Assembly: GCF_039529835.1 (NCBI RefSeq)
Contig: NZ_CP154262.1
Span: 744,001 to 808,000, forward strand
DNA length: 64,000 nt
Reading direction: 5' to 3'
Origin: Arthrobacter sp. TMP15
Lineage (GTDB): Bacteria > Actinomycetota > Actinomycetes > Actinomycetales > Micrococcaceae
This document shows, one piece after another, positions 4,184-29,299 of this stretch (position 1 is its first letter; each line of letters begins with the position of its first letter). Both the position numbers and the translations under genes were made by a program. The notes below the pieces were generated by a model that was given only the letters and a program-made list of their open reading frames with translations, had not been told where the DNA came from and searched no databases.

Positions 4184-4331
4184 GGTGGATGCCTTTGGCT
4201 TGCTCTTACCCGCGAAGATTTTCCGCCGGTCACTTCCTCATCCGAACCACCCTTGAAGCATGGGGAAGGTGCGCGATAAGTCGGAGCTTGGCATCGCATC
4301 TCATGAAGCTGGCTCCAGACTACCGCTTTAA

Positions 4332-20238: not shown

Positions 20239-20448
20239 AGACGAGAGATCCTTAGATCGTTGATGGGGCATCGGAGATATCGAGCCGATGTCGAAATTAG
20301 TCTCAACACTAACGTCACCCCTCTGCGTCCGGGTGCCACAATTCGTCCGAGAAATTTTGCCAAGTGACTTAGCGCCATCGACACCACATTAGAAGCCACT
20401 ATTGATGCCTCCGACGCAACTGACCAAAATCGTAATTCAGGATCCCCT

Positions 20449-20466
20449 CAGGGTTCGAGATACGGG
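20449..20466 (+). repeat. Accessory-region spacer element, variant copy
   Basis: CAGGGTTCGAGATACGGG, related to CAAGGTTCGGCTTACGGG. It lies 50 bases before the acetyltransferase at 20516. No plus-strand gene precedes it directly, so the preceding cargo may have been lost or inverted. Confidence 0.4.
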
Positions 20467-20515
20467 CCGGCATCAGCCCCGTGACCAGCACAGTCCGACG
20501 ACATATGCTCGAACC

Positions 20516-21070
20516 ATGGATGACATCATGCGAGTGCGACGGCATATCGACCTCTCGACAGAGGAACTTGATGCGCTGGAGAAGCTTTTCGATAGCGAAT
20601 ACCGGAGCGAGTTCGGCGTATGGAACCCGGATGCACCCTACGGCTATTCGCCCGCAGACACTCACGTGCTGGCGTTTCGCGGTCAAACACTGGCTGCACA
20701 CGTCGGGTTCCAGCGCCGCTCGATCTCAGTAGGCACCCATGAAGTCATCGTGGCCGGTACGGGAGGTGTCTTGGTCGATGAGCGCTCACGCGGTACTGGT
20801 CTCGGTGCACGAGCGATGCGGCTCGCTCAAGAAGTGATGCGAGATGAAGCCGGTGTCGATTTTGGCTTTCTCGGGTGCCGAGAAGAAGTCGTGCCGTTTT
20901 ACGAGTCGGCGGGGTGGGTTCAGATCCACGCCTCGGAACGGTGTTTATCCCGCCTCGACCAGAGGTCAGTCATCGTGTCCGAGGGCGGACCGAACCTCAT
21001 CTGTTCCGCCAACCATCACGCGAGTCAGTGCCCGCAAGGTGATATCGATCTTCGGGGTACACCCTGGTGA
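20516..21070 (+). CDS. GNAT acetyltransferase resembling aminoglycoside 2'-N-acetyltransferases
   Basis: A 184-residue acetyltransferase. TLAAHVGFQRRSISVGTHEV followed by GTGGVLVDERSRGTGLGARAM matches the core of AAC(2')-I enzymes (strand 4 and acetyl-CoA loop), and the C-terminal QGDIDLRGTPW resembles the AAC(2')/NodA-type end. AAC(2') enzymes inactivate gentamicin-type drugs and are chromosomal in mycobacteria. Sequence identity is clearly distant, so drug activity is a hypothesis. I start at the ATG at 20516, since the upstream frame lacks protein-like character. Confidence 0.7.
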   Translation: MDDIMRVRRHIDLSTEELDALEKLFDSEYRSEFGVWNPDAPYGYSPADTHVLAFRGQTLAAHVGFQRRSISVGTHEVIVAGTGGVLVDERSRGTGLGARAMRLAQEVMRDEAGVDFGFLGCREEVVPFYESAGWVQIHASERCLSRLDQRSVIVSEGGPNLICSANHHASQCPQGDIDLRGTPW

Positions 21071-21161
21071 TCGAACCATCCCGTAGAGCGTTCCTCGAAT
21101 GGATACCCTGAAGTGATCAGGACTATTCTTTGTCCGGCGGGTAGTGATGGAGGATAGGTGC

Positions 21162-21719
21162 ATGGTCAGCGCGGTGAAGGATGAAGGTTGCGTGATTCGA
21201 GTTGGGGGCCGATCGCGAGGTGATGTCATGCAATTGCTACACAGCGCAAATTTCTTGCTCAATGTCCACGCCGAGACGCTGCTTGCTCACCCCGCCTTCG
21301 ACGCACTAGAGAGTCGAAGCTTACGAATCGTGGAAAGAACGGTAGAGGAGCTTGGCTTCGAGAGCGGGGCTACTTGGTCACGGGTCTTCGCCGCTGCGAA
21401 GAACCAAGGCCTCGAACTTTGCCCCTTAGTGACGGGCCCCTACCTCCGATTGGCGATGATGGAGCAGGCGGACGCGCCGGACTCCGTCTTGTCTGCAGGC
21501 CGCGCCCCGACTGGAGCAATCCACGTCGCTTCCGAGCCGCCGAGCGGGGACGTGGAGTATCCGAAGGGGTTCTACATCCGTGTCGTGGGCGGGCGGGCGT
21601 GGCTCAGGGGTTACCGGTGCGATGACACGTATGAGTGTCCGCCAGAACAGCGGTTCGCATTCGTACTGCCAGCTGCCCGACAAAGCGCGAGCTCATTCTC
21701 GGGCCACAGGAAGGGGTAG
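21162..21719 (+). CDS. Conserved protein of unknown function, accessory-region type
   Basis: A 185-residue protein. The series LLNVHAETLLAHPAF, TVEELGFESGATW, LELCPLVTGPYLRL and YPKGFYIRVVGGRAWLRGYRCD is a pattern I know from conserved actinobacterial and proteobacterial proteins often named helicase without evidence. I can give no activity. Start is the ATG at 21162 with GGAGG eight bases upstream, in preference to the GTG at 21144. It is in line with the acetyltransferase upstream. Confidence 0.6.
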   Translation: MVSAVKDEGCVIRVGGRSRGDVMQLLHSANFLLNVHAETLLAHPAFDALESRSLRIVERTVEELGFESGATWSRVFAAAKNQGLELCPLVTGPYLRLAMMEQADAPDSVLSAGRAPTGAIHVASEPPSGDVEYPKGFYIRVVGGRAWLRGYRCDDTYECPPEQRFAFVLPAARQSASSFSGHRKG

Positions 21720-21894
21720 CGATCCCGATGCTGCTTCGCGTTACGGTGGTGGTTCCACAGCGGACAGCAGCACCGATCTCGCCGCCACAGTTGAATTGGG
21801 TGGTTCAACTTCCCGGAGCTGGACCGTCATATGGGACATCCTGACAAGGACGAATCGAACTTGGTTTGGTGACGATCAAAGATACGCTGGCCAC

Positions 21895-22392
21895 ATGGTC
21901 TACAACACTCATCAGCGCGAAATTGCAGCCCCTGCTAGTGAAGTAGGGTCCCTCATTGACTCGCTTGCGAGTAAGAATGATCGGCTGTGGCCCCGAAGCG
22001 AGTGGCCAGCAATGCGCTTGAATGGACCGCTTGGCGTGGGCGCAGCGGGAGGACATGGGCCAGTGCGCTACGTTGTGTCTGTATTCGAGCCCGGCAGGCG
22101 GATCGAATTTCAGTTCACCGGCCCATCGGGTTTCAATGGGCACCACGGTTTCACTGCAACCAGCCTTACGGACAATTCAACGCTACTCCGGCACGAGCTT
22201 TCCGTGTCGCCGAGCGGAGCGGCGAAACTCACCTGGCCAATCTTCTTCAGACCTATGCACGATGCTCTTATCGAAGAAAGTCTTGATCGCGCAGAAAACG
22301 AATTTAGTTCCTCACCAGATGCTGCACACCGCCGGTCGCTGTGGACGAAGATACTTAGGGCACCATTCTCCGCACGGATGACCCGCAAGTAG
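21895..22392 (+). CDS. SRPBCC-family (START-like) protein
   Basis: A 165-residue protein of the SRPBCC fold, a cavity-forming barrel that binds lipids or other small hydrophobic ligands. The opening NTHQREIAAPASEVGSLIDS and the middle VGAAGGHGPVRYVVSVFEPG are typical. The frame is open further upstream, but that part is low-complexity and not protein-like, so I start at the ATG at 21895; the ribosome site is weak. A decayed paralogue lies at 43667-44085. A spacer element follows ten bases after the stop. Confidence 0.7.
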   Translation: MVYNTHQREIAAPASEVGSLIDSLASKNDRLWPRSEWPAMRLNGPLGVGAAGGHGPVRYVVSVFEPGRRIEFQFTGPSGFNGHHGFTATSLTDNSTLLRHELSVSPSGAAKLTWPIFFRPMHDALIEESLDRAENEFSSSPDAAHRRSLWTKILRAPFSARMTRK

Positions 22393-22402
22393 CAAGCCCA
22401 GT

Positions 22403-22440
22403 AGAGGTTCGGCTTACGGGGGCGCTTTGCCACCAATAGA
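22403..22440 (+). repeat. Accessory-region spacer element copy
   Basis: AGAGGTTCGGCTTACGGG (22403-22420) directly 3' of the SRPBCC gene. About 25 bases after it, TTGCCGA pairs with TCGGTAA (one G-T pair), in the place where long copies have their second hairpin. Confidence 0.55.
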
Positions 22441-22485
22441 GTGTTGCCGAGCTCAGAATCGGTAACGATCAGTGAGAATAGGGCC

Positions 22486-23095
22486 ATGCCATACGCCAAC
22501 GACATCGTGACGTTTCACGAACCACCTGTCCCCGAAGGGCAATCACCCTATTCTTGGCGCCGGGGCGTCACTGACTTTCGACATAGTCGACTGGCGTGAT
22601 GAATGGCCCGGGCAATTCCAATTGCTCGCTAAACAGATCAAGGATGCTCTGGGCTGGCGCGCGCTGGTCATCGAACATGTTGGCTCAACCTCCGTTCCAG
22701 GCCTCCCCGCCAAACCGATTATCGACATTGACCTGATCGTCGCCGACCCCAACGATGAGGCGTCATACGTTCCAGCACTTGAACGTGCCGGTTTCGAACT
22801 ACGGGTTCGGGAACCTTGGTGGTTTGGACATCGCGTCCTGCGCCACTTGGAGCCGCCTTGCAATCTGCACCTCTTTGGCTACGACAGTCCCGAGGTAATT
22901 AAGCATCGAATCTTCCGCGACTGGCTTCGCGCCAATCCTGACGATCGTGTTCTCTATTCAGATACCAAGCGCGAGGCGGCAGCTTTGTCTCAGGACGCCG
23001 GCGAACATTCCATGCAGTACAACGCCCGCAAGGAACTCGTCATTAGGGAGATTTACCGTAAAGCGTTCATCGCCACAGGTGTACTCAAAGCCTAG
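22486..23095 (+). pseudogene. GrpB-family nucleotidyltransferase-like gene with a frameshift
   Basis: From ATG 22486 the frame encodes a normal GrpB N-terminus (PYANDIVTFHEPPVPEGQSP, then YSW) and then breaks. The rest is in the next frame from about 22568 (LTFDIVDWRDEWPGQF) to 23095, with the family core EHVGSTSVPGLPAKPIIDID and HLHLF-like CNLHLFGYD. Removing one G from the GGGG run at 22562-22565 joins both parts into one ORF of about 202 codons. Either a real one-base insertion inactivated the gene or the run was misread in sequencing. The GrpB family belongs to the nucleotidyltransferase superfamily; its substrate is unknown. Confidence 0.8.
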
Positions 23096-24299
23096 GAACG
23101 ACAGAAAGGGGCGCACCGTTCCACAGACTGTTCCCGCTACGTACAGGCTCTGGGTGACATCCATTGGCAAGGTATGGTGATGACCGCTTGGACCTGCCTT
23201 ACGATTTATGCCTTTTCTGCGGCGACCCCATTTTGTGCCGGCCAGCAGACCCGAAAGATCGGGGCGGACAAGGAGTGCATAAAAATGCTCTCAACTTGCC
23301 CGCCCCATGTTACTGGTGTTGCTCTGGCCCTCTCAAGCTGTCCGAGAACCAGGTGTTACTGATGTTGCTGTGTCCGCCTCCTCCTGCTTGACGGTCCGGT
23401 ACTGCTGGTGCTGCCCTGGCCGCCTCAAGCTGTCGACGACTAGGAATTACTGGTACTGCTTGTGTTGCTCTGGCCGTCTCAAGCTGTCGACAACCGGATG
23501 TTACTGCAACGGTGCTTCCCCCTCTAGAAAAGCAACTACAACCACTGTGGGCGGGGGAACTTCCGTTCTCTTTTTCTTACGAGAAAAAATATAGCCACTC
23601 TCTGAAATCTCGTCAAGTCGACTTTGGGAGGTCTGAGTTAAGTCGCCTCTAGGGTTGGCACGGGACCTACCTGATGGCTCGCAATCGCTCAGCAGTAAGT
23701 GATCGAAGTCCTCTGCCTTGACGATTGCTCCCGGCCCCTTCCTCATGTCTGAGCTGCTAGTAGCTCCGGCCCTTACGCAGGATTTTCACGGCCCCGGTTC
23801 TCCTGCACGACTTGCGTGCCCTGGATGTCTTTCCGGAGACTTTAGCGACTACCGCCCTGGGCGGGGTTCCTTAGCCTTGGTCGGCACTTAACCGCGCTTG
23901 TAACAGCATCCTCGATGGCCACGCCGTGAAGACAGGCAGCCAGCCCTTCGCCTCGCTAGACCAGGTCGTATTTGAGGCCAGTCTCATCACGCAGTGCTTC
24001 GCATCAGTCCGTTTTCTTCGCCCGCGTACTGCTAGCAGCTCTGGTCTCCCGGACGGCTTCAACCAGCACCTGGGTTGACCGACCCGTTACCACCTCTCCC
24101 GCAAAGCGTTCCTGCTTCGGGGATTGTGGGCTTTTCCGAATCCAGAGGACGGGGACGCTGGCAAAGCACACCTACCCCCGCTTTGGGACGGGTCAGGTAC
24201 CTCCAACTTTGTTTGAGGCAAATGGCTAAAATGAGCTGAATCACGGCTTGATGTTGGCGCGGTTCTGGCAACATTGAGTGTAAGAAATGGGCTTGGATA
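23096..24299. other. Long region with no credible gene
   Basis: About 1.2 kb. It holds the tandem repeat at 23308-23498. Short frames on both strands have no ribosome sites and unnatural composition (many Cys, Ser and Arg). A fragment around 23190-23330 reads LPYDLCLFCGDPI..., which may be a relic of a zinc-binding protein. A short similar pair, CTGCTAGTAGCTCCGG near 23755 and CTGCTAGCAGCTCTGG near 24028, hints at older duplications. I see nothing functional. Confidence 0.45.
23308..23498 (+). repeat. Tandem repeat, four units of 46 bp (last 53)
   Basis: Units start at 23308, 23354, 23400 and 23446, each with the outline TGTTACTGGTGTTGCTCTGG, CCGCCTCAAGCTGTC and a GAC-rich end. The last unit has seven extra bases. 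The first seven bases of a fifth unit follow. The period is not a multiple of three, so it is not a protein repeat. Function unknown. Confidence 0.8.
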
Positions 24300-24875
24300 T
24301 TGGCAATCCGCCACGGAAAGTTTGGTCGAGACATGCGGGAATGGCTCGGGCAGCACCGGAAGGTCATCATTCCGCTGCTCTTAGTCGTGATGGCTTTGGT
24401 ATCACTTCTCGCCTACAGGACAAGTGGAAACACTTGGTCCTTTGGGCTATTTTCAACCCTGTTCAATCTAGTGTGGTGGGGCGGGCTCTATTTCCTGTAT
24501 GCGAGGGAAGCCAGGAAACGGAAGCGCTCTTTAGAGCAGCGAGGCATCTTCGTCTACCTAAGATATCCGGGTTCCCGCCCGGGGTCGTTGCAGGACGTGT
24601 GGGCCGGCGGAACGGCAGCCTGTTACCCACATCAAATTCTGTTCCAAGAGGTCATGTCCGGGTCAGAAGTTCCTCTGGGAAAGCCGACAACATTGGACGT
24701 CGTCAGTGTCCCCGATCTTCCAGAGCCAGTCGCTGGTGGCAAGGCGGGCCACCTGCCACCAGGACTGATGGTACTGACTCTGGCACTGTCCCATGGCGCC
24801 GTGGAGATCGCTGCTGAACCTATAGCTCTAGAAAAGCTGAAACAACAAGTGTTTCATGGTGGCCCCCTAGCCTGA
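24300..24875 (+). CDS. Membrane-anchored protein, possibly DUF2550-like
   Basis: A 191-residue protein with a basic N-terminus, two membrane segments (residues about 22-40 and 48-68) and a cytoplasmic C-terminal domain. The layout RGIFVYLRYPGSRPGSLQDVW, GGTAACYPHQILFQEV and the late GAVEIAAEPIALEKLKQQV resembles actinobacterial DUF2550 proteins, which have a PH-like fold. The match is by pattern only. The gene follows the repeat region and precedes the attenuator of the next gene by about 270 bases. Confidence 0.5.
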   Translation: MAIRHGKFGRDMREWLGQHRKVIIPLLLVVMALVSLLAYRTSGNTWSFGLFSTLFNLVWWGGLYFLYAREARKRKRSLEQRGIFVYLRYPGSRPGSLQDVWAGGTAACYPHQILFQEVMSGSEVPLGKPTTLDVVSVPDLPEPVAGGKAGHLPPGLMVLTLALSHGAVEIAAEPIALEKLKQQVFHGGPLA

Positions 24876-25150
24876 TTCTGGCCTGGACAGATGTGAAGCA
24901 CAACGGAGCGGCAGCCTCCGAGGAGGACCTAACACAGCGTCCCGCAGGAGGGTCCCCTCCGGGCGGGGAGCGAGTGGTTCGATCTCCTCGGTTCGTATTC
25001 ACGACTATCGCGTCCTGCAAGGGTTTCCCTTGCCTGCGTGGCGGCCGTTGAAGAATCTGGCTTTGGTCAGCCCGGAGTGCCGCCATCGCTGTAGCCGTTG
25101 ACACCACGGACCAGTTGTCACTGGAGTCACATGTCTCAAGTGCTACCGGG

Positions 25151-25261
25151 AAGGAGGCCCAGCGTGATCACCACAACCATGGGCGCCTCCTCCCATGAAC
25201 TCACCCGGGCACGATAGGGCCTGGATCGTTCACCGGGCGAGTCGCCTCCTGAACCGGAGGC
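25151..25261 (+). promoter_or_regulatory. Translational attenuator candidate ahead of the acetyltransferase gene
   Basis: Four segments alternate: GGAGGC at 25153-25158 (ribosome site of the leader ORF), GCCTCC at 25185-25190 (inside the leader ORF), GCCTCC at 25244-25249, and GGAGGC at 25256-25261 (ribosome site of the acetyltransferase gene, eight bases before its ATG). Segments 1:2 and 3:4 can pair exactly. The 3:4 hairpin would hide the downstream ribosome site. A ribosome on the leader would disturb pairing 1:2, free a GCCTCC or GGAGGC segment and so alter access to the gene. A TTGACA at 25098-25103 is a possible -35 box. Structure is seen; regulation is inferred from erm/cat-type attenuators. 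Confidence 0.55.
25164..25217 (+). CDS. Leader peptide, 17 residues
   Basis: GTG start six bases after the strong site AAGGAGG (25151-25157), then MITTTMGASSHELTRAR and TAG. It ends 51 bases before the acetyltransferase ATG. The perfect ribosome site for so short a frame, and its place ahead of a ribosome-site-hiding hairpin, are what suggest a regulatory leader peptide. The peptide does not match a leader that I know. Confidence 0.55.
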   Translation: MITTTMGASSHELTRAR

Positions 25262-25268
25262 TTCCTTC

Positions 25269-26225
25269 ATGTTTCGACCTGCATCAATTTCTGACCTCGA
25301 TCTTCTGCTTTCTGCGCGCGCCGAGGACCCCGTAGGGATCATCGACGTGGAGCGCTACCGCCGCGAACTCGAACTCCATCAATATCGGCCCGAATGGAGC
25401 TGGCTACACGAAATCAACGGGCGGCTCATAGCGCGCGCCTTGTGGTGGGGACAACCCCACTCTGATTATCCCGTCTCGCTGGATTGCCTCTGGGTAGACC
25501 CGTCAATCACTGACCCGGGCATCATCGCGGGCCGCCTCGTCGAGGCCGGGCACCACGCGTTGCGCGCGAGCGGCATCGATCGCCTTCCCGATCTGAATAT
25601 GGATGTCCCTCAAAACTGGCACGACGACCCGCGTGCCGTCGCAGCAGTCAAGTGGCGCCAAGACGCCGTCGTGTCCGCTGGGCTGACTGAGACCATTGAA
25701 AGGCTCAGCTATGCCTGGACGGGGAACAAACCCACACCTAAGCGCAGCGACAGGCTGACCTTCACCCCTGCTGATGATCGGGTGTTCCTTGAGATCTTCA
25801 GCGAGGCCGCCCAAGGAAGCCTGGACATACACACACAGGCAGACTTGGCAGAGCTTGGACCGGACGTTCAAGCAGCGGACGATCTCGATTTCTACCTGGG
25901 GCTTCCCGGTGATCGACAGATGTGGCGAATCGCCCAGAATCTGAAGGGAGATCGCGTTGGGTTCATCATTCCTTCCCGGAGTGCCTATAACGCGAGCGTG
26001 AGCTATCTCGGAGTAGTCCCAGAGCATCGTGGACATGGTTTCGTCGATGACCTCCTTGCGGAAATCACGATCATGCACCGGGACAACGGTGCACCCAGCA
26101 TCACGGGTACGACTGACACGACCAACGCTCCGATGGCGGCGGCTTTTCGCCGCGCCGGATATGACGTGACCGCGGTCCGCATAGTCTTTGGGCCCCATCC
26201 CGCCAATATTCTTGGCACAGCATGA
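25269..26225 (+). CDS. GNAT-family acetyltransferase with two tandem GNAT-like halves
   Basis: A 318-residue protein. The C-terminal half carries a normal GNAT core: SYLGVVPEHRGHGFVDDLLA (acetyl-CoA loop) and ITGTTDTTNAPMAAAFRRAGY. The N-terminal half has the same general outline (LHEINGRLIARALWWGQ, LDCLWVDPSITDPGIIAGRL) without a canonical loop, as in two-domain members such as mycothiol synthase-like enzymes. Substrate unknown. Its ribosome site lies in a hairpin behind a leader ORF, an arrangement known from genes induced by ribosome-targeting antibiotics; that makes a resistance role worth testing. A long spacer element follows 38 bases after the stop. Confidence 0.8.
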   Translation: MFRPASISDLDLLLSARAEDPVGIIDVERYRRELELHQYRPEWSWLHEINGRLIARALWWGQPHSDYPVSLDCLWVDPSITDPGIIAGRLVEAGHHALRASGIDRLPDLNMDVPQNWHDDPRAVAAVKWRQDAVVSAGLTETIERLSYAWTGNKPTPKRSDRLTFTPADDRVFLEIFSEAAQGSLDIHTQADLAELGPDVQAADDLDFYLGLPGDRQMWRIAQNLKGDRVGFIIPSRSAYNASVSYLGVVPEHRGHGFVDDLLAEITIMHRDNGAPSITGTTDTTNAPMAAAFRRAGYDVTAVRIVFGPHPANILGTA

Positions 26226-26263
26226 TGTGGATCGGTCAACGCGACCGGAGTGCACCGATAGAG

Positions 26264-26372
26264 GGTCCCCAGCGGAACATGACGAGCTGACGTGAGTGCA
26301 AACTGAGTTTGTTTCTTAATCGCACCTCCGACCGAGCGGCTTACGGGACACTCCGAATATTCCTAGGTGCGA
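26264..26372 (+). repeat. Accessory-region spacer element, long copy
   Basis: Starts with GGTCCCCAGCGGAAC (26264-26278), the first hairpin. Then TCGCACCT (26320-26327) pairs perfectly with AGGTGCGA (26365-26372) around the core CGGCTTACGGGAC (26337-26349). The arms differ completely from those of the copy at 11583, yet they are complementary, which points to a conserved structure. Confidence 0.7.
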
Positions 26373-26514
26373 CAGCCCTAAGGACAGTGCCAGCGTCATT
26401 TTCATCTTGTTTGGCTCCCGCATGTGCAGCGACTTGGAATTACCCACCATGTACTAATGCCAGTCGGTTAGCAGATTAGGATTGAAAATCAGCAATCAAC
26501 TTGACAGGTGAACG

Positions 26515-27105
26515 ATGAGTCTTTCAAAGGCCTACCCACATGGCCCTAGGCTGAGTTTCCGTGACTTCACGGCGGAGGACATCCCGGCTGTGCACGAGTT
26601 CACCTCAGATCCTGAGGTTACTCGCTGGTCAACATGGGGACCGAATACTTTAGAGCAAACAATTTCCTTTGTTAAGGATGCGGCCCGTGCGCACCTGGAA
26701 GAGGGCCGATCAGCGTTTTCACTTGCTGCTGTTTTGGAGGGTAAGACCATTGGCTCTGTGGCCATTTGGACTACCGATCCATACGATCACAACGGAGAGC
26801 TTGGATACACCTTCCACCGCTCCTACTGGGGAAACGGCTATGCCACCGAAACTACGGTCCAGCTACTTAAATTTGGGTTCGATACGCTCAAACTGGAGCG
26901 AATCAGCGCCACCTGCCATCCTGGCAACATCGGTTCAATTCGAGTTCTAGAAAAGAGCGGGTTCACCCTAGAGAGGCGGCTTCGTTCCCACCGATTGGTG
27001 CGAGGAGTTCGCAGGGAGTCTATGCTCTATTCCATTTTGCGCGATGAACACGCCAGCGTAAGAGCCGAGACAATAACTGACTTGGAAAACGACGAATCAC
27101 GTTAA
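26515..27105 (+). CDS. GNAT acetyltransferase, RimJ/RimL type
   Basis: A 196-residue acetyltransferase of the RimJ/RimL group. PRLSFRDFTAEDIPAVHEF is the usual N-terminal strand; GELGYTFHRSYWGNGYATET contains the acetyl-CoA loop; ERISATCHPGNIGSIRVLEKSGF is the conserved C-terminal core. Members acetylate ribosomal protein N-termini, tetracycline-like or other small molecules; the target cannot be read here. ATG with GACAGGTGA upstream. A spacer element follows directly after the stop. Confidence 0.85.
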   Translation: MSLSKAYPHGPRLSFRDFTAEDIPAVHEFTSDPEVTRWSTWGPNTLEQTISFVKDAARAHLEEGRSAFSLAAVLEGKTIGSVAIWTTDPYDHNGELGYTFHRSYWGNGYATETTVQLLKFGFDTLKLERISATCHPGNIGSIRVLEKSGFTLERRLRSHRLVRGVRRESMLYSILRDEHASVRAETITDLENDESR

Positions 27106-27106
27106 T

Positions 27107-27165
27107 CCCACTCAAGGTTCGGCATGCGGGAGGATGTGTGAAGTGAACCAGCCCGCTGCGGTGGG
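27107..27165 (+). repeat. Accessory-region spacer element copy
   Basis: CAAGGTTCGGCATGCGGG (27113-27130), two codons after the acetyltransferase stop, enclosed by the arms CCCAC (27107-27111) and GTGGG (27161-27165). Sixteen bases later the next gene starts, so it fills the whole gap between two genes. Confidence 0.6.
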
Positions 27166-27180
27166 GCCTAGGCTGAGGGC

Positions 27181-27528
27181 ATGATCTTCTCTGTGGTATT
27201 TCTTCTTGCCTGCTACGTTCTGCTGATCATTGTCATCGTGCGATGTGCTGATGGCCGGATCGGCGTCAACGGTCTGGCAGGCATTCGGATATCTTCGATC
27301 ATGGCTACCGAACAAACATGGATCGCAGGCCACAAAGCCGCTAAAAGGCCATCACTAACAGGAATTTATTGCGCCATAATTTTCCTACTTCCAACTCTCT
27401 TTGTCCCGGGGAAAGCGCTGCAAGCAGTCTTCCTTCTCGGATCGTGCCTCATCATGCTCATCGGCGTCATCGCTGGTGCATCCGCAGGATCAAAGGCAGC
27501 AAAGTTAGCTCTAGAAACACGGCACTAG
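27181..27528 (+). CDS. SdpI-like small membrane protein
   Basis: A 115-residue protein with three membrane segments (residues 3-20, 61-77 and 84-105). Between the first two is NGLAGIRISSIMATEQTWIAGHKAA, the conserved cytoplasmic stretch of SdpI-family proteins. In Bacillus SdpI gives immunity to the SdpC killing factor; here no such toxin is seen nearby, so immunity is only a possibility. Confidence 0.65.
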   Translation: MIFSVVFLLACYVLLIIVIVRCADGRIGVNGLAGIRISSIMATEQTWIAGHKAAKRPSLTGIYCAIIFLLPTLFVPGKALQAVFLLGSCLIMLIGVIAGASAGSKAAKLALETRH

Positions 27529-27637
27529 CACCGGCAATGCTCGATATAGAGCAAACGTACCCCGCTCGGCGTTCCGGCTAAGGGACCGATCGCGGCACTA
27601 CCGATCAAGATATGAACTAGCTACTGCTGGTGGGTTC

Positions 27638-28072
27638 CTAACGGGCGGAGACTAGGATATTGTCTGCGATCTTCGTCCATCCTGGTTCAAGTTTTCCGGT
27701 ATCCGAGTCATCTCCGAGAAGAATCGTGGACAGGGAGCCTTTTAGCGAAGACATACTTACGATGTCACCGCTGCGTTTCGTATCGCTACAGCCAACCTGC
27801 CACTCATCGTCTGCGTCAGGTAGAACAACGGCCAAACACGTCGTTTTGGCATCCTCGCTCTGCAACGCGAAGTACTGCACCCCGTCTCTCGTGGCAAGGA
27901 GCCGCGAGCTGTCTCTGTCCACCTGTTCCTGCATAGTGACGAATGCGGGCAACGCATCTTCGGTCGTGGCCGCACGGTCCAGAGCCTTGAGTCCGGACTC
28001 GGCCGAACAGCCACTCAGCAGAAGGACCGCAATACTCGCCGCCATGACGAGCGGAAATGACAGAAGTTTCAT
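27638..28072 (-). CDS. Lipoprotein of unknown function
   Basis: A 144-residue exported protein. The start at 28072 has GGGGAG five bases upstream. The signal KLLSFPLVMAASIAVLLLSGC ends in a clear lipobox with the cysteine at residue 22 (shown here in part: LLLSGC). The mature domain has GVQYFALQSEDAKTTCLAVV and two further cysteines. No family recognised; it stands between SdpI-like protein and the decayed IS30 element, in the opposite orientation to the genes at its left. Confidence 0.65.
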   Translation of the reverse strand: MKLLSFPLVMAASIAVLLLSGCSAESGLKALDRAATTEDALPAFVTMQEQVDRDSSRLLATRDGVQYFALQSEDAKTTCLAVVLPDADDEWQVGCSDTKRSGDIVSMSSLKGSLSTILLGDDSDTGKLEPGWTKIADNILVSAR

Positions 28073-28181
28073 TTTTTCTCCCCAAAGTTCGATTTCACTT
28101 GACGCTACAGCATGTGCCCTGCAGTCAACCAAAACAATACGAAGCCATGCTGCCCGCCAAAGTTTCCCGTAGACGTTCGGT

Positions 28182-29299
28182 GGATTCTGGCGGTCATTGC
28201 AACAGGAGGGGTTCGATCAGTTCGATCGGTTTCGTGAACTCTAGTCGTTTGCGTGGTCTGTCGTTGAGTTCAGCGGCGACCCAGTCAAGATCCTGGGCAC
28301 TGTGGATGCTCAAATCAGTCCATTTGTGTTCTCGTTGATACCACGCTGCCAGGGCGAATACGGGTCGCAAAAGTAGATCTCGATGCCCGTATCAATCTTC
28401 ACGGTTTTCCAGTCCCGTATTTCGATGCCTTGATCCCAGGTCAGGGAATGTCGCAGTGCTTGCGGGAGTGTTTTGATCTTCGCGGTCAATGCCTCACGCA
28501 TCTGCTCCCCTTTGTACCCCTGGGGTAAGTGGACGAGCATCGTGTAGTTGGTGTTGCGTTCCACCAGGGTCCCAATAGCGGTCTGGTTACCCTTGCCAAT
28601 GATCAAATCTCCTTCCCAATGTCCTGGTACGGCACGGTCTTGCGGGAGGTGCGCCGCACGGCCCGCCCAGTGCGTAAATACGCGACCAGATCCCGATTCA
28701 AGGCTCCCCTGGACTGGTCGTACAGGGACTGGTAAATAGTCTCCGGTGACACCTGCATCTCCTCTTCGTTGGGGAACTGGACGCGTAATCGTCCTGCGAT
28801 TTGTTCCGGTGAATACTTCTTGGCAAGGTCCGCTTCCACCACTGTACGCAGGGCTATGTTCGTGTGGAGTTTGGCCGGTTTCGGCCGGCTGGCACGCTCG
28901 TAGGCGAGCATGTGGGCCGAGGTTGCCCGGTAGGCGGTGCCGGGTTTCGTGTTGCGTCTCAACTCCCTGGATACCGTCGAGGTAGACCGGCCAATAACCT
29001 CCCCGATCGCTCTCAAGGACCGTCCCTGGGCGCGGAGAATCGCGATCTCTTCACGCTGAGTGAAGGTCAGGCACCGGCCCTTTAAATTCCTGCCGCGGCG
29101 TGGCCGCACACCAACAGCGTTAGCCACAACAGTGCGCCCGGTACGCCTACTGGTGTTGATCGGAATAACGGCATCAGTGATGAAATCACCTGCCTGCATC
29201 CATGCCCAAAAGACCTGCAGTAGATCCGGCCGGAAAAGGATTGAATAGTTCGCCATAGCAACACTCATTCACTAAGTGTTGCAATCACCGCAAGAACCC
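28182..29299 (-). mobile_element. IS30-family insertion sequence, degenerate
   Basis: 1118 bases with terminal inverted repeats: GGATTCTGGCGGTCATTGCA at the left end (28182-28204) matches the reverse complement of the right end (29277-29299) at 20 of 23 positions. The size is typical of IS30 elements. Its transposase is broken. It is not the same type as the element at 9641, whose repeats differ. Confidence 0.8.
28194..29268 (-). pseudogene. IS30 transposase remnant (frameshift and deletion)
   Basis: The N-terminal part (29268-28603) holds the helix-turn-helix FTQREEIAILRAQGRSLRAI and the YSPEQIAGRLRV segment. At about 28605-28630 the frame shifts just before GHWEGDLIIG. The central part (28606-28310) carries LTWDQGIEI and SPWQRGINENTNGL. 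The segment after NENTNGL (normally LRQYFPKGT) is missing, about 28 bases, and the last 40 residues (LSIHSAQDLDWVAAELNDRP...) lie in another frame. Two lesions make it inactive by itself. Confidence 0.85.

What the first reader, a model, noticed from the sequence alone, without database searches (positions are those of the whole stretch)
25098..25271. Leader peptide and hairpin that hides the ribosome site of an acetyltransferase gene
A 17-codon ORF with a perfect AAGGAGG site lies 51 bases before the acetyltransferase start. The gene's own GGAGG is paired in GCCTCC-N6-GGAGGC. The leader's ribosome site (GGAGGC) has its own complement (GCCTCC) inside the leader ORF, giving four interchangeable segments. 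This is the logic of erm/cat translational attenuators, but I know of no such arrangement for a two-domain GNAT protein. It suggests induction by a compound that stalls ribosomes, and thus a drug substrate.
Basis: partly seen in the sequence, partly recalled or inferred. Interest (0 to 1): 0.66.

Follow-up and report, generated by a model that had tools for sequence, protein, structure and literature searches.

The report
Leader-ORF attenuator before an acetyltransferase gene
A tiny gene with its own ribosome site sits in front of an acetyltransferase gene in an Arthrobacter, and the same layout recurs before relatives of that enzyme in other actinobacteria, which suggests a switch that senses stalled ribosomes; the switch itself is untested.

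Summary
A 17-codon GTG leader (25164-25217) with a perfect AAGGAGG lies 51 nt before a 318-aa GNAT gene (25269), whose GGAGG is one arm of a 6-bp hairpin (25244-25261). No shuffle gave a leader with a 7-nt ribosome site (0 of 4000).

The layout recurs. Such a leader precedes 40 of 93 homologues against 0 of 97 control genes. A strong helix in the leader region recurs with different sequences (29 of 50 rows at or below 5/100 shuffles). Eight of 49 leader rows, mostly Streptomyces-like, carry the WblC/WhiB7 antibiotic-stress promoter; the window does not.

Against: 25 of 29 rows of the window's clade lack a leader, the small Shine-Dalgarno hairpin is patchy, and the fold model opens the gene's ribosome site only partly when a ribosome sits on the leader. 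Leader peptides show no protein-level selection, so ermC-like peptide stalling is less likely.

Best reading: a translational attenuator that senses ribosome position, tied to a little-studied GNAT family. Induction and substrate are unproven. New variant of a known kind.

The parts
25126..25150 (+). Start of the stretch shared with the sister strain (25126-29222, 99% identical); upstream DNA is unrelated in the two strains; the sister's upstream ORFs look transposase-like by eye (no family search made)
   Evidence: blastn and ORF list of L003 against the window; base-by-base comparison
25151..25157 (+). Leader ribosome site AAGGAGG (SD1)
25164..25217 (+). Leader ORF, GTG start, 17 codons, VITTTMGASSHELTRAR, TAG stop
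   Evidence: leaders at the same place in homologues; 0 of 4000 shuffles
25185..25190 (+).
25199..25208 (+). Arm a, leader codons 12-15; pairs with arm b (10 positions, 1 mismatch; 25199-25242 folds at -19.4 kcal/mol)
   Evidence: 12 of 100 shuffles give an equal or better helix
25233..25242 (+). Arm b; partner of arm a, and part of the alternative hairpin with arm c
25228..25254 (+). Alternative (anti-sequestering) hairpin b:c, -10.8 kcal/mol; contains the anti-Shine-Dalgarno GCCTCC
25244..25249 (+). Arm c, GCCTCC, anti-Shine-Dalgarno of the acetyltransferase gene
25256..25261 (+). Arm d, GGAGGC, holding the gene's ribosome site GGAGG (SD2, 25256-25260); c:d hairpin folds at -10.5 kcal/mol
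25269..26225 (+). GNAT-family acetyltransferase, 318 aa; GNAT domain recognised in the C-terminal half
   Evidence: Pfam PF00583 28.6 bits; nearest PDB sequence nourseothricin acetyltransferase 5c82, E 3.6e-9 over 187-301

Best explanation
The leader and its RNA form a translational attenuator for the GNAT gene. Resting state: arm a (in the leader) pairs with b, and c pairs with d, so the gene's ribosome site is closed. A ribosome held in the 3' half of the leader covers a; b can then keep c, which leaves the ribosome site open and lets the GNAT be made. Because the leader peptide shows no protein-level selection, the trigger is probably ribosome position or slowness in general rather than one nascent peptide, and the natural trigger is probably a ribosome-targeting compound that the enzyme acetylates. 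Shown: leader ORF, ribosome sites, possible hairpins, recurrence in homologues. Inferred: translation of the leader, the switch, the inducer, the substrate.
For: Leader with a ribosome site of 7 nt or more in 40 of 93 homologues against 0 of 97 control genes; of 5 nt or more 53 of 93 against 2 of 97 (rows are related, so not independent). Best helix between leader start and SD2 at or below 5/100 shuffles in 29 of 50 leader rows, with different sequences in different groups (GGCGCUUCUC/GAGAAGCGCC, GCGCUCCC/GGGAGCGC, GCCGCCCUC/GAGGGCGGC). SD2 hairpins of other sequence in L015 (CTTTCCT/AGGAAAG), L065 (GCCTCCA/TGGAGGC) and a set of rows with CTCTCC/GGAGAG and varying loop. SD2 costs more to open than in shuffles in 35 of 49 leader rows (mean 5.22 against 4.58 kcal/mol); in the window 8.8, with 3 of 25 shuffles as high. 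In the window b:c (-10.8) and c:d (-10.5) are nearly equal, and with the ribosome on codons 15-17 RNA ending before SD2 folds into b:c. The Streptomyces-like leader model lies directly before this GNAT family in 40 of 42 hits tested. WblC-type promoter in 8 of 49 leader rows against 0.1% of shuffles. No intrinsic terminator pattern on the + strand here.
Against: SD2 still costs 5.2 kcal/mol to open at the best ribosome position in the window (8.8 without). RNA ending before SD2 also folds into b:c with no ribosome and with ribosomes at two early positions, and does not at three positions near or over arm a (codons 11, 13 and the stop), so the model does not single out the proposed state. Over 49 leader rows a ribosome on codon 1, codon 2 or mid-leader hardly differs from shuffles (-0.33/-0.15, -0.13/-0.14, -0.25/-0.13); only the last codon does (-1.66/-0.50, 31 of 49 rows). 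SD2 hairpins of 5 bp or more: 30 of 72 homologues against 15 of 97 controls, a modest excess. The window's a:b helix is not significant alone (12 of 100). The 29-row clade holding the window has 25 rows without a leader. The window, L004 and L005 lack the WblC box. Translation of the leader rests on ribosome site and ORF length only.
Confidence: 0.45

Rival explanations
1. Translational coupling: ribosomes that finish the leader melt the Shine-Dalgarno hairpin and feed the GNAT start; the leader sets the level and is not a drug sensor.
For: In the ten MYRQV-type rows the leader stop ends 16-18 nt before the gene start, next to the hairpin; a ribosome on the last codon lowers SD2 opening cost most; in L005 the leader stop overlaps the gene's AAGGA by one base.
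Against: In the window 26 nt lie between the stop and the hairpin, too far for direct melting; a long helix in the leader region would not be needed; some members sit behind an antibiotic-stress promoter.
Confidence: 0.22
2. Transcription attenuation, as for whiB7/wblC and ARE-ABCF genes: the leader controls early termination, intrinsic or Rho-dependent.
For: That is how other drug-responsive uORFs in actinobacteria are reported to work (PMC12421871, PMC11550727, passages read); several rows have long GC-rich helices in the leader region.
Against: No intrinsic-terminator pattern on the + strand between leader and gene in the window. The homologues were not scanned for terminators; runs of 4-5 T do occur in some (L004, L073, L089). 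Rho-dependent ending cannot be tested here.
Confidence: 0.17
3. Relic: the leader belongs to the family, but in this lineage it is no longer wired; upstream DNA has been replaced and the gene is silent or driven from a chance promoter.
For: Upstream sequence differs completely between two strains from 25126 outward; no sigma-70-like promoter by consensus before the leader (a simple scan); no WblC box.
Against: Both strains keep 25126-25268 without a difference, but at 99% overall identity only about 1.4 differences would be expected, so this says little.
Confidence: 0.13
4. Direct riboswitch: the RNA binds an aminoglycoside-like substrate itself, as claimed for the aac/aad leader RNA.
For: Similar pairing of two ribosome sites was proposed for aac/aad (details recalled; start of the abstract of PMC7588185 seen).
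Against: No Rfam family at gathering score at the leader or in 20 homologue loci; the aac/aad claim itself is contradicted by PMC9410878 (abstract read); sequence is not conserved between groups, unlike an aptamer.
Confidence: 0.03

Closest known systems
erm/cat translational attenuators (ermC type; features recalled)
   Same: Short leader ORF with a strong ribosome site, possible 1:2/3:4 against 2:3 pairing, and the gene's ribosome site in a hairpin
   Different: No protein-level selection on the leader peptide; the gene is a GNAT enzyme; the fold model gives only partial release; induction untested
uORF attenuators of whiB7/wblC and Streptomyces ARE5 ABCF genes (PMC11550727, PMC12421871, passages read)
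   Same: Actinobacterial uORF before a drug-response gene
   Different: Those are described as acting through premature transcription termination; no terminator pattern seen in the window and the gene's ribosome site itself is paired
aac/aad 'aminoglycoside riboswitch' of integrons (PMC7588185 start of abstract; contradicted by PMC9410878 abstract)
   Same: Leader with ribosome-site pairing before an acetyltransferase (details recalled)
   Different: That sequence corresponds to the integron integration site (PMC9410878 abstract); here the layout recurs over diverged actinobacterial genes with no Rfam match. An integron was not looked for
WblC/WhiB7 regulon GNATs (PMC7157823, PMC10727445, passages read)
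   Same: Some members of this family carry GAAAWY 3 nt before the -35 ahead of the leader
   Different: In the passages read of these two papers uORF control is stated for whiB7/wblC itself, not for its GNAT targets; the window lacks the box

Membership tests
Translational attenuator (ermC type; defining features recalled) | Short leader ORF with its own ribosome site upstream of the gene | tested here: met
Translational attenuator (ermC type; defining features recalled) | Gene's ribosome site held in a stem at rest | tested here: met
   By prediction only: 6-bp c:d hairpin; SD2 opening cost 8.8 kcal/mol, 3 of 25 shuffles as high
Translational attenuator (ermC type; defining features recalled) | A ribosome on the leader frees the gene's ribosome site | tested here: inconclusive
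   Cost falls to 5.2 kcal/mol at codon 17, still closed at equilibrium; b:c folds first in the nascent RNA at codons 15-17, but also without a ribosome
Translational attenuator (ermC type; defining features recalled) | Conserved leader peptide that stalls with the drug | tested here: not met
   L004 and L005 peptides differ wholly; in 22 distinct 18-codon Streptomyces-like leaders entropy is 0.93/1.13/0.90 at codon positions 1/2/3, although some residues recur (Thr at codon 4 in 17 of 22, Arg-Ser at 8-9 in 21 of 22, the latter inside the helix)
Translational attenuator (ermC type; defining features recalled) | Induction by the cognate drug | not testable with these tools
   needs a reporter or ribosome profiling
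Transcription attenuator (whiB7/ABCF type) | Intrinsic terminator between leader and gene | tested here: not met
   none on the + strand of the window there by a simple pattern scan; homologues not scanned
WblC/WhiB7 regulon | GAAAWY 3 nt upstream of the -35 | tested here: not met
   absent in window, L004, L005; full promoter in 8 of 49 leader rows and 10 of 37 in a larger Streptomyces-like set that shares rows with the 49
aac/aad riboswitch or other Rfam family | Match to a curated RNA family | tested here: not met
   (gathering threshold only)
GNAT acetyltransferase | Acetyltransf_1 domain above Pfam cut-off | tested here: met
   28.6 bits against 20.7 for the whole protein, best stretch 228-298
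Streptothricin acetyltransferase (STAT) | NCBIfam curated score | tested here: not met
   25.8 bits against a cut-off of 420

The most novel reading that the evidence does not exclude
A large actinobacterial GNAT family is controlled by leader attenuators that read ribosome position rather than a nascent peptide, in Streptomyces-like members stacked on a WblC/WhiB7 promoter, so that the enzymes form an undescribed, drug-inducible layer of resistance to ribosome-targeting compounds whose substrates are unknown.
Probability: 0.33. Interest if true: 0.72.

Novelty: new variant of a known kind. Interest (0 to 1): 0.55.

Why it matters
If true, a leader of this kind flags which members of a mostly unassigned acetyltransferase family are drug-responsive, points to ribosome inhibitors as inducers and likely substrates, and gives a case where a leader senses ribosome position without a selected peptide. 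Streptomyces members would offer two-layer control (WblC promoter plus attenuator) that can be tested in a standard laboratory strain.

Tried and rejected
Codon-1 stalling as a general trigger: little different from shuffles over 49 rows (-0.33 against -0.15 kcal/mol). Peptide-dependent stalling: no protein-level selection. Intrinsic termination: no pattern in the window. Rfam: no match at the leader. Substrate from structure: a fold without homologues was useless (mean pLDDT 34.6), so no fold search was made. Streptomyces-like RNA model on 24600-27600 of the window: one weak match (12.9 bits) on the other strand at 24945-25022, not at the leader. Literature searches (listings, abstract starts and passages of five papers seen): none was seen to describe leaders before this family; most subscription papers are not held.

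Rows left out of the 93: L001, L002 and L055 (the window or the sister again; L003 stands for it), weak hits (L016-L024, L035-L054), partial or broken pieces (L014, L025, L026, L034), L060, repeats of the same genes (L066, L068), L130 and L134 (fetched, not analysed), weak hits for which no locus was given, and 13 of 18 plasmid records (not fetched). Among the 93, L086/L087 and L062/L108 are near copies. L003, L006 and L013 were left out of the tree; L006 (54% identity, short ORF) has no leader by the rule. Among 38 non-leader rows 6 had a helix at or below 5/100; of these L063 (candidate leader overlapping the gene start) and L094 (helix of the Streptomyces-like type) look leader-like.

Full report
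WHERE. The window lies in a 3.7-Mb genome. A same-species genome has a contig of the same length as one named Arthrobacter sp. H35-MC1. 25126-29222 is 99% identical there, and upstream of 25126 the two strains differ wholly. The sister's upstream ORFs look transposase-like by eye; no family search was made on them.

OBSERVATION. All coordinates of the finding hold. In 4000 shuffles a leader with a ribosome site of 7 nt or more arose 0 times, the anti-Shine-Dalgarno arm 31 times, arm plus a leader of 5 nt or more 0 times. The energy of the whole UTR is ordinary (z -1.39).

THE PROTEIN. 318 aa; a GNAT domain is recognised only in the C-terminal half. The nearest PDB sequence is nourseothricin acetyltransferase 5c82, E 3.6e-9 over 187-301 (4.1e-7 with a six-row profile); the STAT model scores 25.8 bits against a cut-off of 420. 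This is a hint towards streptothricin-like substrates, not an assignment. The N-terminal half matched nothing at the thresholds used. The single-sequence fold failed.

HOMOLOGUES. The protein was found in 2 of 23 genomes of the genus (both of the window's species), 23 of 395 of the family and 45 of 396 of the order (many of these matches weak), and by profile at E 1e-40 in 65 of 394 of the class. Eighteen plasmid records matched, of which 5 were fetched.

LEADERS. In 93 homologue upstream regions a script found ribosome-site-plus-short-ORF candidates in 61. Under a stricter rule the counts are 53 (site of 5 nt or more), 49 (6 or more) and 40 (7 or more), against 2, 1 and 0 of 97 control genes taken from the same loci and the window. 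Typical leaders: VQFTPFQRSLSVAPACCA (Streptomyces-like), MFAKNVVPVPSRGAAGR, MSTLMTRSHLGRQDA and MYRQVFRAALRRGDGG in other groups, VLTPINSALQSTRPAELASRREEKST in L015. The rows are related, so counts are not independent.

TREE. 91 rows: 49 leader, 4 weak, 38 none; the fewest changes of leader-or-weak against none is 10. The window groups with L004 and L005 (leader) and L062, L108 (none) at 99%; the 29-row clade around it has 25 rows without a leader, 3 with, 1 weak (quick method, several long branches). The leader was kept from an older state, or regained, in the window's branch; the data do not decide.

STRUCTURE. The best helix between the leader start and SD2 is matched by at most 5 of 100 shuffles in 29 of 50 leader rows. 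In some groups it joins leader and post-leader RNA, in the MYRQV-type rows it lies almost wholly inside the leader. For comparison, 6 of 38 non-leader rows reach that level over 75 nt before SD2. Sequences differ between groups while the pairing stays. In the window it is 12 of 100. The small SD2 hairpin is seen in 30 of 72 homologues against 15 of 97 controls at 5 bp or more, and 10 of 72 against 3 of 97 at 6 bp or more.

SWITCH IN THE WINDOW. a:b folds at -19.4, c:d at -10.5, b:c at -10.8 kcal/mol. RNA ending just before SD2 folds into b:c with the ribosome at codons 15, 16 and 17, but also with no ribosome and at two early positions, and not at codons 11 and 13 or at the stop. At equilibrium SD2 stays costly to open: 8.8 kcal/mol without a ribosome, 5.2 at codon 17. 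Over 49 leader rows SD2 is closed a little more tightly than in shuffles (5.22 against 4.58 kcal/mol, 35 of 49 rows), and only the last-codon ribosome position differs from shuffles (-1.66 against -0.50, 31 of 49), partly because in short leaders the ribosome then lies next to SD2. The thermodynamic model therefore allows the switch but does not show it.

PEPTIDE. In 22 distinct 18-codon Streptomyces-like leaders entropy is 0.93, 1.13 and 0.90 at codon positions 1, 2 and 3, so there is no sign of protein-level selection; some residues recur, such as Thr at codon 4 (17 of 22) and Arg-Ser at codons 8-9 (21 of 22, inside the helix). Frame changes swap the C-terminal half between close relatives. 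A rule that allowed 15-24 codons found a leader in 40 of 49 loci, all 15-20 codons long. L004 and L005 leaders differ wholly in peptide. Sensing by ribosome position is therefore more likely than by a nascent peptide.

REGULON. GAAAWY occurs in 10 of 49 leader rows and the full promoter pattern in 8 of 49 (shuffles 2.7% and 0.1%), against 3 and 1 of 38 non-leader rows. In a larger Streptomyces-like set, which shares rows with the first, both counts are 10 of 37. The window, L004 and L005 have neither. The motif is from PMC7157823 (passages read), which lists 16 GNATs in the WblC regulon.

SPECIFICITY. The Streptomyces-like leader model (built from 12 such leaders) hits 42 of 81 genomes of that genus, 43 hits, with 43 first-look candidates scored per genome. 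Of the 42 hits tested, 40 lie on the same stretch as a homologue directly downstream; the other two precede a rifampin-monooxygenase-like gene and another GNAT followed by an IF-1 gene. The 43rd (G792) is the L094 homologue.

VERDICT. A real, recurrent leader element before a GNAT family; an attenuator is the likeliest mechanism but unproven; inducer and substrate are open.

Noticed in passing
L172:30-1169: A leader-model match (E 9.6e-5) with the leader MYAGPIWVLPLPVTAGRPR lies before a gene matching rifampin monooxygenase (460 bits over the 329 aa held; cut-off 800 for the whole protein).
   Followed up: partly
L176:30-1149: A weak leader-model match (E 0.0027) lies before a different GNAT that is followed at once by an IF-1 (infA) gene (78.9 bits, cut-off 61.15); the leader is VNTVTHGCSLNPSRSGG.
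   Followed up: partly
window 25125/25126 and L003:2857/2858: The two strains of one species part exactly here, 38 nt before the leader start; the sister's upstream ORFs look transposase-like by eye, so the promoters may differ.
   Followed up: partly
window 4197-4308 (-): SAM-IV riboswitch, 62.6 bits against a gathering score of 38.
   Followed up: no
window 20402-27105: Three GNAT-type genes within 7 kb (20402, 25269, 26515), with a GrpB-family gene (22622) between and an SdpI-family gene (27181) after them.
   Followed up: no
L004 and L005, about 85-110 nt before the leader start: A palindrome of the form ATACCCC..GGGGTAT (L004) lies upstream of the leader; it recalls a copper-repressor operator (recalled, not tested).
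   Followed up: no
Streptomyces-like leaders, codon 4: Thr at codon 4 in 17 of 22 distinct 18-codon leaders, with a variable third codon position: the one place where a residue rather than the RNA may be kept.
   Followed up: no
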